From: Nannobrachium achirus
Lineage: Eukaryota; Chordata; Actinopteri; Myctophiformes; Myctophidae
Length of the DNA stretch: 64,000 bases
Direction of reading: 5' to 3'
NCBI GenBank assembly: GCA_963921795.1
Contig: OY997642.1
Coordinates: 27,801,960 to 27,865,959, forward strand
The notes under the pieces are model-generated. The model was not told the DNA's origin, did no database searches, and worked only from the letters and a program-made list of their open reading frames with translations. Within the stretch, counting starts at the first letter, position 1. Each line of letters starts with the position of its first letter. This document shows positions 1,986 to 16,912 of the stretch, piece by piece. Both the position numbers and the translations under genes were made by a program.

Positions 1986-4748
1986 ATGATAGCCTCACAT
2001 CTGTTGTCGTACTACTTCACCCAAATTAATGAAGACCAAGTACAAAAAGTGGACAGATATCTGTACCACTTGCGGCTGTCTGATGAGACCCTGATGGACA
2101 TCTCCTCGAGGTTCCGACGAGAGATGCATAAGGGCCTGCGCCGTGACACGAACCCTATTGCAGCTGTCAAGATGCTGCCCACGTATGTGCGCTCAATTCC
2201 TGATGGAACGGAGAGCGGTGATTTCTTGGCCCTGGACCTTGGAGGGAGTAACTTCCGTGTGCTGCTGGTCAATGTGTCATCAAACGGCAAGAAGGAGGTG
2301 GAAATGAAGAATCAAATCTACGAAATTCCAGAAAACCTTAAGAGAGGCCGCGGCTCAGAGTTGTTCGACCACATAGCTGATTGCCTGTCTGAGTTCCTGG
2401 ATAAGATGGGCATAAAAGAGAAAAAACTTCCACTGGGTTTGACCTTCTCTTTCCCTTGCCAGCAGAACAAGTTGGATGAGAGTATTCTGGTATCATGGAC
2501 CAAAGGCTTCAAGGCGAGTGGTGTGGAAGGGAAGGATGTGGTCAGTCTCCTGAGGGAAGCCATCAAGAAACGAGGGGACTTTGATGTTGAAATAGTAGCT
2601 GTGATTAACGACACAGTGGGCACCATGATGACTTGTGGCTATGAGGACAATCAGTGTGAGATTGGCCTGATTGTAGGAACAGGCACCAATGCCTGCTATA
2701 TGGAGGAAATGCGCAACCTGGAGATGGTGGAGGGTGATGAGGGGAGGATGTGCGTCAACATGGAATGGGGAGCTTTTGGAGATGATGGGACCCTAGAGGA
2801 CCTGCGCACTGACTTTGACCGAGAGATAGATGCAGGCTCCCTAAACCCTGGCAAGCAGCTGTTTGAGAAGATGATCAGTGGTCTATACATGGGGGAGCTT
2901 GTGCGACTGATCCTGGTGAAAATGGCTAAGGAAAAGCTGCTTTTCCAGGGACAGATAACACCAGACCTCCTCACCACTGCACAATTCCACACCAGCGATG
3001 TCTCGGCCATTGATAACGACAAGGACAAGGAGGGTCTGGTGAGTGCTGAGACGGTGCTCCGCCGCCTGGGTCTGGAGCCATCAGCTGAGGATTGCGTAGC
3101 CACCCAGAGGGTGTGTCAGGTTGTGTCGACGAGGGCCGCCCACCTCTGTGCTGCCACACTGGTAGCTGTGCTTCAGCAGATCAAGGACAACAAGGCAGAA
3201 AAGAAGCTCTGCAGCACCATCGGGGTGGACGGGACAGTCTACAAAAACCATCCACAGTTTGCAAAAAGGCTCCACAAGCTGGTGCGGCAGCTGATGCCGG
3301 ACTGCAGTGTGCGCTTCCTACGTTCAGAGGCTGGCAGTGGGAAGGGAGCAGCCATGGTGACAGCAGTGGCCTATCGCCTGGCCAAGCAGCATGCAGAGCG
3401 TCAGTGCATCCTGGACCAGTTCCGACTTAGCCATGAGCAGCTCTTGGATGTGAAGAGGAGGATGGGTGAAGAGATGGTGCAGGGTCTGGCCAAGGAAACC
3501 CACCAAGCAGCCAGTGTCAAGATGCTTCCCACCTATGTCCGGGCCACACCGGATGGAACAGAAAGCGGTAACTTCTTGGCTCTGGACCTTGGTGGCACCA
3601 ACTTCCGTGTGCTCTTGGTGCGTGTGCGAAGTGGCAAGAAGCGTAGTGTAGAGATGCACAAAAAGATCTACGCCATCCCCCAAGAAATCACGCAGGGCAC
3701 AGGGGAGGAGCTCTTCGACCACATTGTACATTGCATTGCTGACTTTCTGTCATATATGGGAATGAAAGGCGCGACCTTACCTCTTGGCTTTGTATTCTCC
3801 TTCCCCTGTCAACAAAATGACCTGGATCAGGGCATTTTGCTGAACTGGACAAAGGGTTTCAAAGCTAGCGGCTGTGAGGGGGAGGATGTAGTGACACTGT
3901 TGAAGGATGCCATCCACCGCACAGGTGAGCTTCAATTGGATGTAGTGGCATTGGTGAATGACACGGTGGGGACAATGATGACTTGCGCCTTTGAGGATCC
4001 TATGTGTGAAGTGGGACTCATTGTAGGAACAGGCACCAACGCCTGCTACATGGAAGAGATGGAGAATGTAGAGTTGGTGGAAGGTAAGGAAGGGCAGATG
4101 TGTGTCAACATGGAGTGGGGTGCATTCGGAGACCATGGGGAGCTTGATGAATTCCGTACCAAGTTCGACCACACCGTGGACGACACCTCCATCCACCCGG
4201 GGATACACAGGTATGAGAAGATGATCAGCGGGATGTACCTGGGCGAGATCGTCAGGAACGTGCTGCTGGAGTTCACTGCCAAAGGTCTGCTATTTACAGG
4301 CAAGCTGCCTGAGCGCCTCAATACTCCAGGCATCTTTGAGACCCCGTTCCTGTCAAAGATTGAAAAAGACCGACTGGCACTGCTGGAGGTCCGCTCCATC
4401 CTGCAACACTTGGGCCTCACCAACTCCACCTGTGACGACAGCATTCTGGTGAAGGAGGTGTGCGGTGTGGTGTCACGGCGTGCAGCCCAGCTGTGTGGCG
4501 CAGGCCTCGCTGCTGTCGTGGACAAGATCCGACAGAACCGCCACTTGGAGCGGCTCCACATCACTGTGGGGGTGGACGGATCCCTCTACGACCTACACCC
4601 GCATTTCAAAAGCATCATGCAGGAGACAGTTGAAAGTTTGGCACCACAGTGCGAGGTCACCCTGCTACTCTCAAAGGATGGCAGTGGGAAGGGAGCAGCG
4701 CTCATCACAGCGGTGGCCTGCAGGATCAGAGATGCAAGGCAGCACTAA
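1986..4748 (+). CDS. hk2: Intact intronless hexokinase-2 copy (probable functional retrogene)
   Basis: A single 920-codon frame matches hexokinase 2 along its whole length (human HK2 is 917 residues). Hexokinase phosphorylates glucose to glucose-6-phosphate using ATP. The N-terminus MIASHLLSYYFTQ is the hydrophobic helix that docks HK1 and HK2 on the mitochondrial outer membrane. Two homologous kinase halves follow, about 16-460 and 464-915. Each has the phosphate-binding LDLGG(S/T)NFRV, the glucose-binding SFPCQQN and WTKGFKASG segments, and the catalytic Asp in NDTVGTMM (residue 209, and about 657). GTGTNACYMEE and the C-terminal GSGKGAA motifs are also intact in both halves. Vertebrate HK2 genes have about 18 exons; this copy has none of the introns and no disabling change, so I read it as an mRNA-derived copy kept open by selection or very young. 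A TATA box precedes it and AATAAA follows 40 bp after the stop. Confidence 0.93.
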   Translation: MIASHLLSYYFTQINEDQVQKVDRYLYHLRLSDETLMDISSRFRREMHKGLRRDTNPIAAVKMLPTYVRSIPDGTESGDFLALDLGGSNFRVLLVNVSSNGKKEVEMKNQIYEIPENLKRGRGSELFDHIADCLSEFLDKMGIKEKKLPLGLTFSFPCQQNKLDESILVSWTKGFKASGVEGKDVVSLLREAIKKRGDFDVEIVAVINDTVGTMMTCGYEDNQCEIGLIVGTGTNACYMEEMRNLEMVEGDEGRMCVNMEWGAFGDDGTLEDLRTDFDREIDAGSLNPGKQLFEKMISGLYMGELVRLILVKMAKEKLLFQGQITPDLLTTAQFHTSDVSAIDNDKDKEGLVSAETVLRRLGLEPSAEDCVATQRVCQVVSTRAAHLCAATLVAVLQQIKDNKAEKKLCSTIGVDGTVYKNHPQFAKRLHKLVRQLMPDCSVRFLRSEAGSGKGAAMVTAVAYRLAKQHAERQCILDQFRLSHEQLLDVKRRMGEEMVQGLAKETHQAASVKMLPTYVRATPDGTESGNFLALDLGGTNFRVLLVRVRSGKKRSVEMHKKIYAIPQEITQGTGEELFDHIVHCIADFLSYMGMKGATLPLGFVFSFPCQQNDLDQGILLNWTKGFKASGCEGEDVVTLLKDAIHRTGELQLDVVALVNDTVGTMMTCAFEDPMCEVGLIVGTGTNACYMEEMENVELVEGKEGQMCVNMEWGAFGDHGELDEFRTKFDHTVDDTSIHPGIHRYEKMISGMYLGEIVRNVLLEFTAKGLLFTGKLPERLNTPGIFETPFLSKIEKDRLALLEVRSILQHLGLTNSTCDDSILVKEVCGVVSRRAAQLCGAGLAAVVDKIRQNRHLERLHITVGVDGSLYDLHPHFKSIMQETVESLAPQCEVTLLLSKDGSGKGAALITAVACRIRDARQH

Positions 4749-4787
4749 TGACGCCTGAGCTCCCTGAAAACACTCAATGCCTTCTTG

Positions 4788-4793
4788 AATAAA
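4788..4793 (+). terminator. Poly(A) signal after the hexokinase copy
   Basis: AATAAA lies 39 bp past the TAA stop of the hexokinase frame. It could have been carried in from the parent mRNA. An A-rich stretch follows at 4859-4932, but no clean poly(A) tract marks the end of the copy. Confidence 0.5.
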
Positions 4794-15335: not shown

Positions 15336-16606
15336 AATCGGAAATGTTGAAGGGACCTGGCCAAGTTCATTAAACTGGATTAAATTCTCTCAAGTGAAGT
15401 GTATCCACTCCCCTTGTCTGCTCGCTTGGACTGCAAAGGACATCTCAATGCCTCTGCCGTGTGTTCTTGGCATATAATACCAGTCAATATCCAGTCAGTC
15501 TTGGCTGTGCAAGAAGTTGAAGGTCCTTCACAAGTTGTAATTTCTTATACATTTTCACATCCAACAAATAAAAACAATGTTTGCAGTAGGCAGAGGGACT
15601 ATCCTTTATAGGGAAACAATTCAAGTATGGGATATTACTCTAGGTTCGGATAAGAAAATTGCCCTACACCTGACCCAATCGTTCATCCATGTAAGTCCTG
15701 TGCGATACACCATCCGGGGAACTATGTGAAAGTCATACAAAGCCCTGTTACCCTTGGCTCGGGTCTCCCGTGTTGGCACATCCTGTCCATTCAGGTGCGG
15801 CTATCTAACTACATCTGTAGATGTGGGGATAACATTAGATAGCATTTAGAAAACTAAACTACACTACCACTAAAATATCACCATCAGCACATTAATAACA
15901 GAAACTATGGCATTATTAAGCGGAGTGTATTTAGCTTGCACTGAACCCCATGAGTTTCATAGCAGTGGTGTCACCAGTGTGCCCTAGCTGTGCTTCAACA
16001 TCCACTATATTACATTCCATTCATTGAATGGTTCAGTTGTTTCTGATATAGGGATTGTTACGTTTATTGGATCAAATTTGAATTCCAATAAAATAGATAA
16101 TTGCTCTATGTTGGCCATATGGCTGCCATCTTGAAAGAAACAGTGATAATATACTGTATATACAGTATACAGTGAGATAGAAGGACACTTCTGGCCAATT
16201 CCAAAGTTCCAAATTTGAATTCTGCATCATAAAGAATTACTGATATCAGACAGTCATACAAGTTACGGCTGCCATCTTGAAAAATGGTGGCCATCTTGAA
16301 TATTCAATGACAATTTCTCAGTTATCTAAAATACCTTTACCAAGTACTATGTATGGTAAATATGATATAATATCATATTATATCCATTACGCATAAGAAA
16401 ACAGTTGTTGTTGGTGGCTATTTTGAAAAATCGGCTGCCATGGGCGCCATGTTGAAAATTCATGATGCCTCCATATCCAAATCTTTGGGAAATACCTTTG
16501 GCTATAAGTGTACCAAATTTCATGCTTGTATCACAAACTGAACGATTCCTTTATATTTAGCAGCTAAGCCGCTGGACTACTACATAATTCTGTATTTGGC
16601 AGAAAT

Positions 16607-16912
16607 ATGGTGGTGCCCGTAGCACTTCACTTGGAGTTTCAAGGAGGGGCTGAGTTACTCTTTGATGGTGTGAAAGAACATGCTGTGACTCTTCCAAGCC
16701 AATCAGAGCCTTGGGACATGAAGCAGCTGCTAGTTTGGATTCGACAGAACCTGCTGAAAGAACGGTCAGAGCTCTTTGTCCAAGGAGACACTGTAAGACC
16801 TGGCATTCTGGTGCTCATCAATGAAGAAGATTGGGAGCTTGTGGGGGAGTTGGAGTACCAGCTTCAGGACCAAGATAATATTGTGTTCATTTCAACTCTA
16901 CATGGGGGTTAG
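16607..16912 (+). CDS. urm1: Intact intronless urm1 (ubiquitin-related modifier 1)
   Basis: A 101-codon frame, exactly the length of human URM1. It contains GGAELLFDG, LLKERSELFVQGD, VRPGILVLINEEDWELVGEL and YQLQDQDNIVFISTLHGG. URM1 is a sulfur carrier: its C-terminal Gly-Gly is activated by MOCS3 as a thiocarboxylate and donates sulfur for 2-thiolation of wobble uridines in cytosolic tRNAs, and it can also be attached to proteins under oxidative stress. The terminal GG is intact. The N-terminal stretch MVVPVALHLEFQ fits the first beta strand. Vertebrate URM1 genes have several introns; none is present, so this is another mRNA-derived copy. It starts only 60 bp after the right arm of the transposon at 16547, whose arm might supply promoter sequence. 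Confidence 0.92.
   Translation: MVVPVALHLEFQGGAELLFDGVKEHAVTLPSQSEPWDMKQLLVWIRQNLLKERSELFVQGDTVRPGILVLINEEDWELVGELEYQLQDQDNIVFISTLHGG

What the first reader, a model, noticed from the sequence alone, without database searches (positions are those of the whole stretch)
1986..16912. Five intronless copies of unrelated multi-exon genes within 15 kb
hk2, mrpl37, klhdc3-like, mpi and urm1 all appear without introns, side by side, on both strands, while the neighbouring genes from 23 kb on are normally interrupted. Parent functions are unrelated: glycolysis, mitochondrial ribosome, ubiquitin receptor, mannose metabolism and sulfur carrier. Three of the five frames are intact. Separate insertions in both orientations point to a preferred landing or retention site for mRNA-derived copies, or to an active reverse-transcription machinery in this lineage.
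Basis: partly seen in the sequence, partly recalled or inferred. Interest (0 to 1): 0.78.

Follow-up and report, generated by a model that had tools for sequence, protein, structure and literature searches.

The report
Retrogene cluster beside giant kelch-receptor family
A 15-kb stretch of a fish chromosome holds intronless copies of four ordinary multi-exon genes, and a fifth intronless gene there belongs to a family of apparently over a thousand copies of a protein-degradation receptor whose target-binding pocket looks unusually variable in its relatives.

Summary
HK2, MRPL37, MPI and URM1 are mRNA-derived copies of intron-containing parents in the same genome (C12, C5, C11, C15). HK2 and MPI are intact and constrained, URM1 is intact but short, MRPL37 has a 14-bp frameshift. 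Divergences differ (dS about 0.43, 0.30, 0.18), so the copies are separate events. HK2 gained a TATA promoter not found next to its parent and multiplied with it: intact copies on C5, C24 and C6 (dN/dS 0.34-0.38). No convincing poly(A) or target-site duplication remains. A hotspot is possible but unproven; retrocopies were not counted genome-wide.

The klhdc3-like frame is no lone retrocopy but a broken member of an enormous intronless KLHDC3-like family. Of 3,442 first-look candidates the best 140 loci were scored, nearly all uninterrupted frames, on 23 contigs. A degenerate 11-residue motif occurs 1,157 times (reversed control 0). Unnamed relatives from other sequence sets keep the propeller framework and Elongin/Cul2 tail, but most C-degron contacts of KLHDC3 (R240, S241, R292, Y32, Y78, T309) are hypervariable. 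Best reading: hugely amplified CRL2 substrate receptors with diversified pockets. Function, and variability within this genome, are untested.

The parts
1986..4748 (+). HK2 retrogene, 920 codons, both hexokinase halves intact, intronless
   Evidence: parent C12:28806663-28826726(-) with 18 exon matches, dN 0.110, dS 0.297
1815..1821 (+). TATAAAA box of the acquired HK2 promoter; the region is shared with the C24 and C6 copies but shows no match in the 1.27 kb upstream of the parent's start codon
1255..4878 (+). unit shared with the C24 copy (upstream repeat array, promoter, 5'UTR, coding sequence, 3' end); the C6 copy shares most of it, with an insertion of about 6.8 kb upstream of the promoter and a second one after the stop
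1313..1606 (+). array of about 48-bp units carrying CCATATATGGGCAT-like sequence; also found around the C24 and C6 HK2 copies
6567..6685 (-). decayed fragment of MRPL37 exon 1 lying inside the same repeat array
7577..8984 (-). MRPL37 retrocopy with 5'UTR, 8 fused exons and part of the 3'UTR; 14-bp deletion at about 8207 shifts the frame
   Evidence: parent C5:28510228-28516267(+)
9675..10499 (+). KLHDC3-like intronless frame lacking about the first 41 residues of KLHDC3 and ended by a TAG at 10500-10502; broken member of a very large family (1,157 motif copies)
11241..12509 (-). MPI retrogene, 422 codons, intact
   Evidence: parent C11:49888553-49895597(-), 7 introns lost, dN 0.088, dS 0.431
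13792..16547 (.). long inverted repeats (about 550 bp, 83% identical) of a DNA-transposon-like element directly upstream of URM1
16607..16912 (+). URM1 retrogene, 101 codons, intact
   Evidence: parent exons C15:24624518 and C15:24634450

Best explanation
Four genes (HK2, MPI, MRPL37, URM1) were copied here from spliced mRNA at different times, most likely by a LINE-type reverse transcriptase, into a repeat-rich interval that tolerates insertions. Two (HK2, MPI), possibly three, were kept as working retrogenes. HK2 landed beside or acquired a TATA promoter and was later copied, promoter included, to two other chromosomes. The fifth frame has another history: it is a broken member of a hugely amplified intronless KLHDC3-like family. 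The best reading of that family is that a KLHDC3 cDNA copy became the founder of more than a thousand CRL2 substrate receptors, spread partly by tandem duplication, with the propeller framework and Elongin/Cul2 tail conserved and the degron pocket diversified. Shown: intron-containing parents of four copies, closed junctions, divergences, constraint on HK2 and MPI, motif copy number of the family, and hypervariable pocket positions in unnamed relatives. Inferred: the enzyme that made the copies, tolerance of the site, expression, founding of the KLHDC3-like family from KLHDC3 mRNA, that each motif copy is one family member, receptor function, and pocket diversity within this genome.
For: Intron-containing parents and closed junctions for HK2, MPI, MRPL37 and URM1. 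HK2 copies C5/C24/C6: pairwise dN/dS 0.34-0.38 (NG86; 0.41-0.43 by YN00) with no stops, Fisher p 1e-7 to 4e-12, and zero stops where 4-6 per copy are expected without selection. MPI: dN/dS 0.20 and no stop where 6.6 are expected. The promoter region is shared among the three HK2 copies but has no match in 1.27 kb upstream of the parent. KLHDC3-like family: 3,442 first-look candidates; 141 matches at 140 loci scored; 139 of 141 rows without an internal stop; 137 of 140 frames at least 330 aa; 23 contigs; 12 of 140 within 10 kb of another, against 0.2 expected at random. The motif for IIGTKMFVFGG occurs 1,157 times against 0 for the reversed control. Pocket: 6 of 7 KLHDC3 degron-contact positions that are near-invariant in KLHDC3 are hypervariable in 14 unnamed relatives, against 60 of 210 other near-invariant columns (p=0.0036; rank test 2e-4), while L338, L341, C342, A345 and L356 of the tail do not vary. 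The model of a family member matches KLHDC3-EloB/C 9d1i best (TM 0.91).
Against: No convincing target-site duplication at any copy: two A-rich matches exceed the 30 shuffles by one base, the rest do not. No 3'UTR match for HK2 or MPI. The genome-wide number of retrocopies is unknown. URM1's open frame could be chance (P of no stop 0.21). For the KLHDC3-like family: the pocket test uses proteins of unknown species, not this genome's own copies, whose letters I could not fetch; S34 falls just under the cut and D325 is not near-invariant in KLHDC3; the search ranks the best copies first, which favours intact ones; the intron-containing KLHDC3 gene of this genome was not located. No expression data were available.
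Confidence: 0.72

Rival explanations
1. The cluster is chance plus selective reporting: in a genome with very many retrocopies, four in 15 kb happen somewhere, and this window was picked because it looked odd.
For: With 10,000 retrocopies about one cluster of 4 or more per 15 kb would be expected in this genome; with 5,000, 0.07. The window was selected for being unusual.
Against: Fish are reported to carry fewer than mammals: 652 in zebrafish (PMC3091775, passages read), lower counts in all non-mammalian lineages (PMC13320880, passages read). At 652 the expectation is 2.2e-5.
Confidence: 0.25
2. Retention rather than insertion hotspot: insertions fall everywhere, but this interval has germline-active chromatin or promoters, so copies landing here are expressed and kept.
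For: HK2 and MPI are intact and constrained; HK2 lies behind a promoter region that is not its parent's.
Against: MRPL37 and the KLHDC3-like frame are broken yet present; no expression data.
Confidence: 0.4
3. The KLHDC3-like family is a passenger of a transposable element that captured a KLHDC3 cDNA; the copies are repeats rather than working receptors.
For: 1,157 motif copies, and scored loci on 23 contigs; 25 of the 32 printed motif copies, all from the first 3.3 Mb of C1, are identical at the nucleotide level, which fits recent amplification.
Against: Tandem clusters; no internal stop in 139 of 141 scored rows (best-scoring ones); in unnamed relatives variation is concentrated in the loops and spares the framework and tail.
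Confidence: 0.3
4. The three HK2 copies are separate retropositions of the multi-exon parent rather than copies of one retrogene.
For: All three are intronless.
Against: They share upstream sequence with no match at the parent and are much closer to one another (dS 0.10-0.16) than to the parent (0.30-0.32); they form one clade.
Confidence: 0.03

Closest known systems
Processed retrocopies and functional retrogenes (for example the 652 zebrafish retrocopies, PMC3091775)
   Same: Intron loss against an intron-containing parent, new chromosomal place, a mix of intact and broken copies, dN/dS below 0.5 for HK2 and MPI.
   Different: Four unrelated ones within 15 kb; HK2 then multiplied together with an acquired promoter region.
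KLHDC3 and the KLHDCX Cul2-RING substrate receptors (PMC11568203)
   Same: Kelch propeller plus a tail like the Elongin-BC/Cul2-binding one; best fold match is KLHDC3-EloB/C 9d1i.
   Different: Intronless, 1,157 motif copies; the RSR carboxylate anchor (R240, S241, R292) and C-terminal Gly are not kept in the relatives examined.
Large F-box, MATH-BTB and TRIM/NLR receptor families of nematodes, plants and fish (recalled, not tested here)
   Same: Many lineage-specific copies, conserved effector-binding part, diversified recognition surface.
   Different: Here the receptor is a Cul2/Elongin-type kelch protein in a vertebrate, and intronless.
Spermatogenic hexokinase HK1S (PMC11285943, search listing and start of abstract only)
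   Same: A hexokinase form other than the housekeeping one.
   Different: The fish genes are HK2-derived and intronless, with no expression data.

Membership tests
Processed retrocopy | Introns of the parent absent, junctions fused | tested here: met
   HK2 18 exon matches, MPI 7 junctions, MRPL37 7 junctions, URM1 at least one junction
Processed retrocopy | Intron-containing parent elsewhere in the genome | tested here: met
   C12, C11, C5, C15 for HK2, MPI, MRPL37, URM1; not located for KLHDC3
Processed retrocopy | 3' poly(A) remnant and target-site duplication | tested here: inconclusive
   Only two A-rich matches exceed shuffles, by one base; poly(A) looked for by eye only; dS 0.2-0.4 is old enough to erase both
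Functional retrogene | Intact frame under purifying selection | tested here: met
   HK2 three copies and MPI; URM1 inconclusive (P of no stop 0.21); MRPL37 and KLHDC3-like broken
Functional retrogene | Transcribed | not testable with these tools
   No RNA data held; only a TATA box at 1815-1821 conserved in the three HK2 copies
KLHDC3-type CRL2 substrate receptor | Six-bladed kelch propeller | tested here: met
   Pfam match of the window frame; model of unnamed relative P0245, pLDDT 82, best match 9d1i TM 0.91
KLHDC3-type CRL2 substrate receptor | BC-box and Cul2-box tail | tested here: met
   L338, L341, C342, A345, L356 do not vary in the unnamed relatives; motif names recalled; not examined in this genome's other copies
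KLHDC3-type CRL2 substrate receptor | RSR carboxylate anchor R240, S241, R292 | tested here: not met
   Hypervariable in 14 relatives; C, G, S in the window copy
KLHDC3-type CRL2 substrate receptor | C-terminal Gly acting as degron mimic | tested here: not met
   0 of 13 unnamed relatives end in Gly, against 10 of 10 KLHDC3 with untruncated ends
KLHDC3-type CRL2 substrate receptor | Binds Elongin B/C and Cul2, ubiquitylates substrates | not testable with these tools
   Needs biochemistry

The most novel reading that the evidence does not exclude
This fish carries a repertoire of more than a thousand intronless Cul2 E3 substrate receptors built on KLHDC3, with a constant scaffold and E3-docking tail and a hypervariable degron pocket: a germline-encoded, immune-like (antiviral, anti-transposon or self/non-self) protein-degradation receptor system in a vertebrate.
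Probability: 0.3. Interest if true: 0.93.

Novelty: new variant of a known kind. Interest (0 to 1): 0.8.

Why it matters
A vertebrate E3 substrate-receptor family of more than a thousand members with variable binding pockets would be a large recognition system that my searches of the open-access library did not find reported; most subscription papers are missing there. The HK2 part is a clear case of a retrogene that gained a promoter region not found next to its parent and multiplied with it, keeping full-length frames intact in three places. The four-retrocopy cluster offers a concrete place to test insertion preference against retention preference.

Tried and rejected
Considered and dropped. 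(1) Conserved intronless genes: rejected, since intron-containing parents exist for four of five. (2) Segmental duplication of one five-gene block: rejected, since the parents lie on four chromosomes and homology of the C24 and C6 loci to the window is limited to HK2 and repeats. (3) Three separate retropositions of HK2: rejected by the shared promoter region. (4) The CCATATATGG repeat as the agent of spread: its 16-mer occurs 18 times in the 20-kb C24 locus, 3 times in the window, once in C6 and not in the other 173 kb checked, but the genome-wide search did not complete, so no claim is made. (5) Target-site duplications: nothing convincing above shuffles. (6) KLHDC3-like genes on viral contigs: none confirmed. 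(7) Rfam families and tRNAs in the window: none. (8) A genome search with relative P0245 did not complete.

Rows and controls: of 3,442 first-look KLHDC3-like candidates only the best 140 were scored. One search listed only its first 100 places, all on C1. The 14 unnamed and 14 named KLHDC3 sequences were chosen by me from the 120 listed (of 125 found); short ones were left out. The entropy cuts (0.4 and 2 bits) were first used, before I read the pocket residues. In one search, one of the 14 unnamed (divergent end) and four of the 14 KLHDC3 sequences (truncated or altered ends) were left out of the C-terminal count. Exon edges in the codon comparisons are those of local alignments and run a few codons into introns in places, which inflates divergence slightly. 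An early MPI query was out of frame by my error and was redone. Notebook slips corrected here: TATA box at 1815-1821; 139, not 138, of 141 rows without a stop; 25, not 23, of 32 identical motif copies.
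Full report
What is there. The window is C5:27801960-27865959 of an unnamed 1.66-Gb genome. Protein trees place it among acanthomorph teleosts; among the best 120 of 3,167 database proteins listed for the HK2 copy none exceeded 84% identity, so the species remains unidentified. Within 1.9-17 kb lie five uninterrupted frames: hexokinase-2, MRPL37 (in two overlapping frames), a KLHDC3-like kelch protein, mannose-6-phosphate isomerase and URM1, on both strands. From about 23 kb the genes are split into exons; by eye these are UCK2, ALDH9A1 and a peroxiredoxin (names recognised from the translations, not searched).

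Four are mRNA-derived copies. Their intron-containing parents are in the same genome. HK2: C12:28806663-28826726, 18 exon matches. MPI: C11:49888553-49895597, whose 8 exons appear fused in the window at 7 junctions. MRPL37: C5:28510228-28516267, only about 0.7 Mb away, 8 exons fused at 7 junctions, with 5'UTR and part of the 3'UTR also copied. URM1: C15, with two exons about 10 kb apart seen beside a run of N. Synonymous divergence from the parent is 0.43 for MPI and 0.30 for HK2, 0.15-0.18 for the main frame of MRPL37 and 0.19-0.31 for URM1 over only 51 codons. With the zebrafish rate of 4.13e-9 (PMC3091775, passages read) the first three are roughly 52, 36 and 22 My old. The rate is borrowed from another fish, so the ages are rough, but the spread argues for separate events. 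MRPL37 divergence is uneven along the copy: about 13% in exon 1, 2% in exon 5, 16% in exon 7 and 24% in the last exon with 3'UTR. I cannot explain this; gene conversion with the nearby parent is possible.

Condition. HK2 is full length (920 codons). MPI (422) and URM1 (101) are intact. MRPL37 carries a 14-bp deletion that shifts the frame. The KLHDC3-like frame lacks about 41 N-terminal residues and ends at a TAG at 10500. Without selection, HK2 would be expected to have gained about 11 stops since retroposition and MPI about 6.6; neither has any. URM1's intactness could be luck (P 0.21).

HK2 is a small retrogene family. Two other intronless, uninterrupted HK2 frames lie on C24 (935 aa stop to stop) and C6 (933 aa). 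Between the three, dS is 0.10-0.16 and dN/dS 0.34-0.38 by NG86 or 0.41-0.43 by YN00; the deficit of non-synonymous change is significant in each of the three pairs (p 1e-7 to 4e-12). Matching to the parent begins only 53 bp before the start codon and ends at the coding end; no more was found in the 1.27 kb upstream of the parent's start that I had. The copies nevertheless share further upstream sequence with a TATA box at 1815-1821 and, beyond it, an array of CCATATATGG-bearing repeats. The C6 copy has an insertion of about 6.8 kb between array and promoter. So a retrocopy gained a promoter region not found next to its parent and was then copied with it. Whether by DNA duplication or by a second round of reverse transcription is open; a match at the ends of the window unit is A-rich and only one base longer than in shuffles. 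In the C6 copy the usual HK2 start codon is changed and an upstream ATG remains.

Is the cluster more than chance? That depends on how many retrocopies this genome has, which I did not measure. At the zebrafish number (652) clusters of four in 15 kb are expected 2.2e-5 times per genome, at 2,000 2e-3, at 5,000 0.07, at 10,000 about once. Published surveys put fish below mammals (PMC13320880, passages read). A hotspot of insertion or retention is thus plausible, not shown. Near the C24 and C6 HK2 copies no MRPL37, MPI or URM1 copy was found; by eye the frames of 90 aa or more there were repeats, HK2 and, on C6, a zinc-finger gene; a KLHDC3-like copy lies about 20 kb away on C6.

The fifth frame leads elsewhere. 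Searching the genome with the KLHDC3-like frame gave 3,442 first-look candidates, against 6 to 51 for the four other answered protein or family queries. The best were scored: 141 matches at 140 loci, all but one locus covering at least 263 of 275 residues in one frame, 58-78% identical apart from the window itself, 139 of 141 rows without internal stop, median frame 360 aa, 137 of 140 at least 330 aa, on 23 contigs and more clustered than random (12 of 140 within 10 kb of another against 0.2 expected). A degenerate pattern for the conserved IIGTKMFVFGG occurs 570 times on one strand and 587 on the other, the reversed control 0. I take each as one family member, intact or broken; beyond the 140 no frame was checked. 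Of the first 100 places, all on C1, 69 lie in the first 10.1 Mb and 21 gaps are under 5 kb, with a run at about 2.3-kb spacing. Of the 32 motif sequences printed, all from the first 3.3 Mb of C1, 25 were identical. So this is a very large intronless family, partly in tandem. The probability that one of 1,157 falls in a given 15 kb is about 1%.

What the family may do. The protein search returned many unnamed proteins from ena, jgi and lgn sources, mostly on contigs of 0.6-4 kb; I presume environmental or unannotated assemblies, species unknown. Fourteen of the longer ones, aligned with 14 KLHDC3 proteins of named vertebrates, keep the kelch framework and mostly the C-terminal SLKTLCKLAV...LPHxIRWEL tail, which I recognise (recalled) as Elongin-BC and Cul2 boxes, but vary strongly in loops recurring around the propeller. 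Structures of KLHDC3 with ubiquitin show the degron carboxylate held by R240, S241 and R292, with Y32, Y78, S34, T309 and D325 also named (PMC11568203, passages read). Of the 7 of these that are near-invariant in KLHDC3, 6 are hypervariable in the family (S34 just misses the cut; D325 was not near-invariant and so not counted), against 60 of 210 other near-invariant columns (Fisher p=0.0036; rank test p=2e-4). The window copy has C, G and S for the anchor. None of 13 ends in the Gly that KLHDC3 uses as a degron mimic, against 10 of 10 KLHDC3 with untruncated ends. A model of one member has pLDDT 82 and matches KLHDC3-EloB/C best (TM 0.91). The reading I favour is a receptor repertoire: constant scaffold and E3 docking, variable recognition. 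A transposon passenger is the chief rival.

Known or new. Retrocopies and retrogenes are a known kind, and so are large E3-adaptor families in nematodes and plants (recalled). I found no paper on a KLHDC3 expansion in fish: searches for klhdc3 + fish + expan (26 papers, 20 listed, none on this by title and abstract start), for the full protein name with gene family and copies (0), klhdc3-like (0), and kelch + intronless + teleost + gene family expansion (0). Most subscription papers are outside that library. I therefore file it as a new variant of a known kind.

Noticed in passing
window 7107-7335: Near-perfect 229-bp palindrome (91% self-complementary), likely a foldback or miniature transposon.
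   Followed up: no
window 14508-14868: Long TACTG pentanucleotide array inside the inverted-repeat element; a similar short array shows up in translated frames near the C24 HK2 copy.
   Followed up: no
window 1313-1606, 6081-6940, 10772, 13568, 19559; C24 and C6 loci: Repeat with palindromic CCATATATGG (resembles a CArG box, recalled); its 16-mer occurs 3 times in the window, 18 times in the 20-kb C24 locus, once in C6 and not in the other loci checked.
   Followed up: partly
window 16940-19370: Stretch bounded by inverted GTGACGTGACG-like ends seen by eye, containing a short frame at 18000; possible DNA transposon just downstream of URM1.
   Followed up: no
window 12690-12720 (minus strand): Pyrimidine tract and CAG upstream of the MPI start look by eye like a 3' splice site, so MPI may have gained an untranslated exon.
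   Followed up: no
C6:22197001-22217000 (L014, L015): Insertion of about 6.8 kb upstream of the HK2 promoter flanked by GCTCTGAGTCA on both sides, read by eye.
   Followed up: partly
C5:28510228-28516267 versus window 8984-7577: Divergence of MRPL37 copy and parent is about 13% in exon 1, 2% in exon 5, 16% in exon 7 and 24% in the last exon with 3'UTR, suggesting gene conversion or mosaic origin.
   Followed up: no
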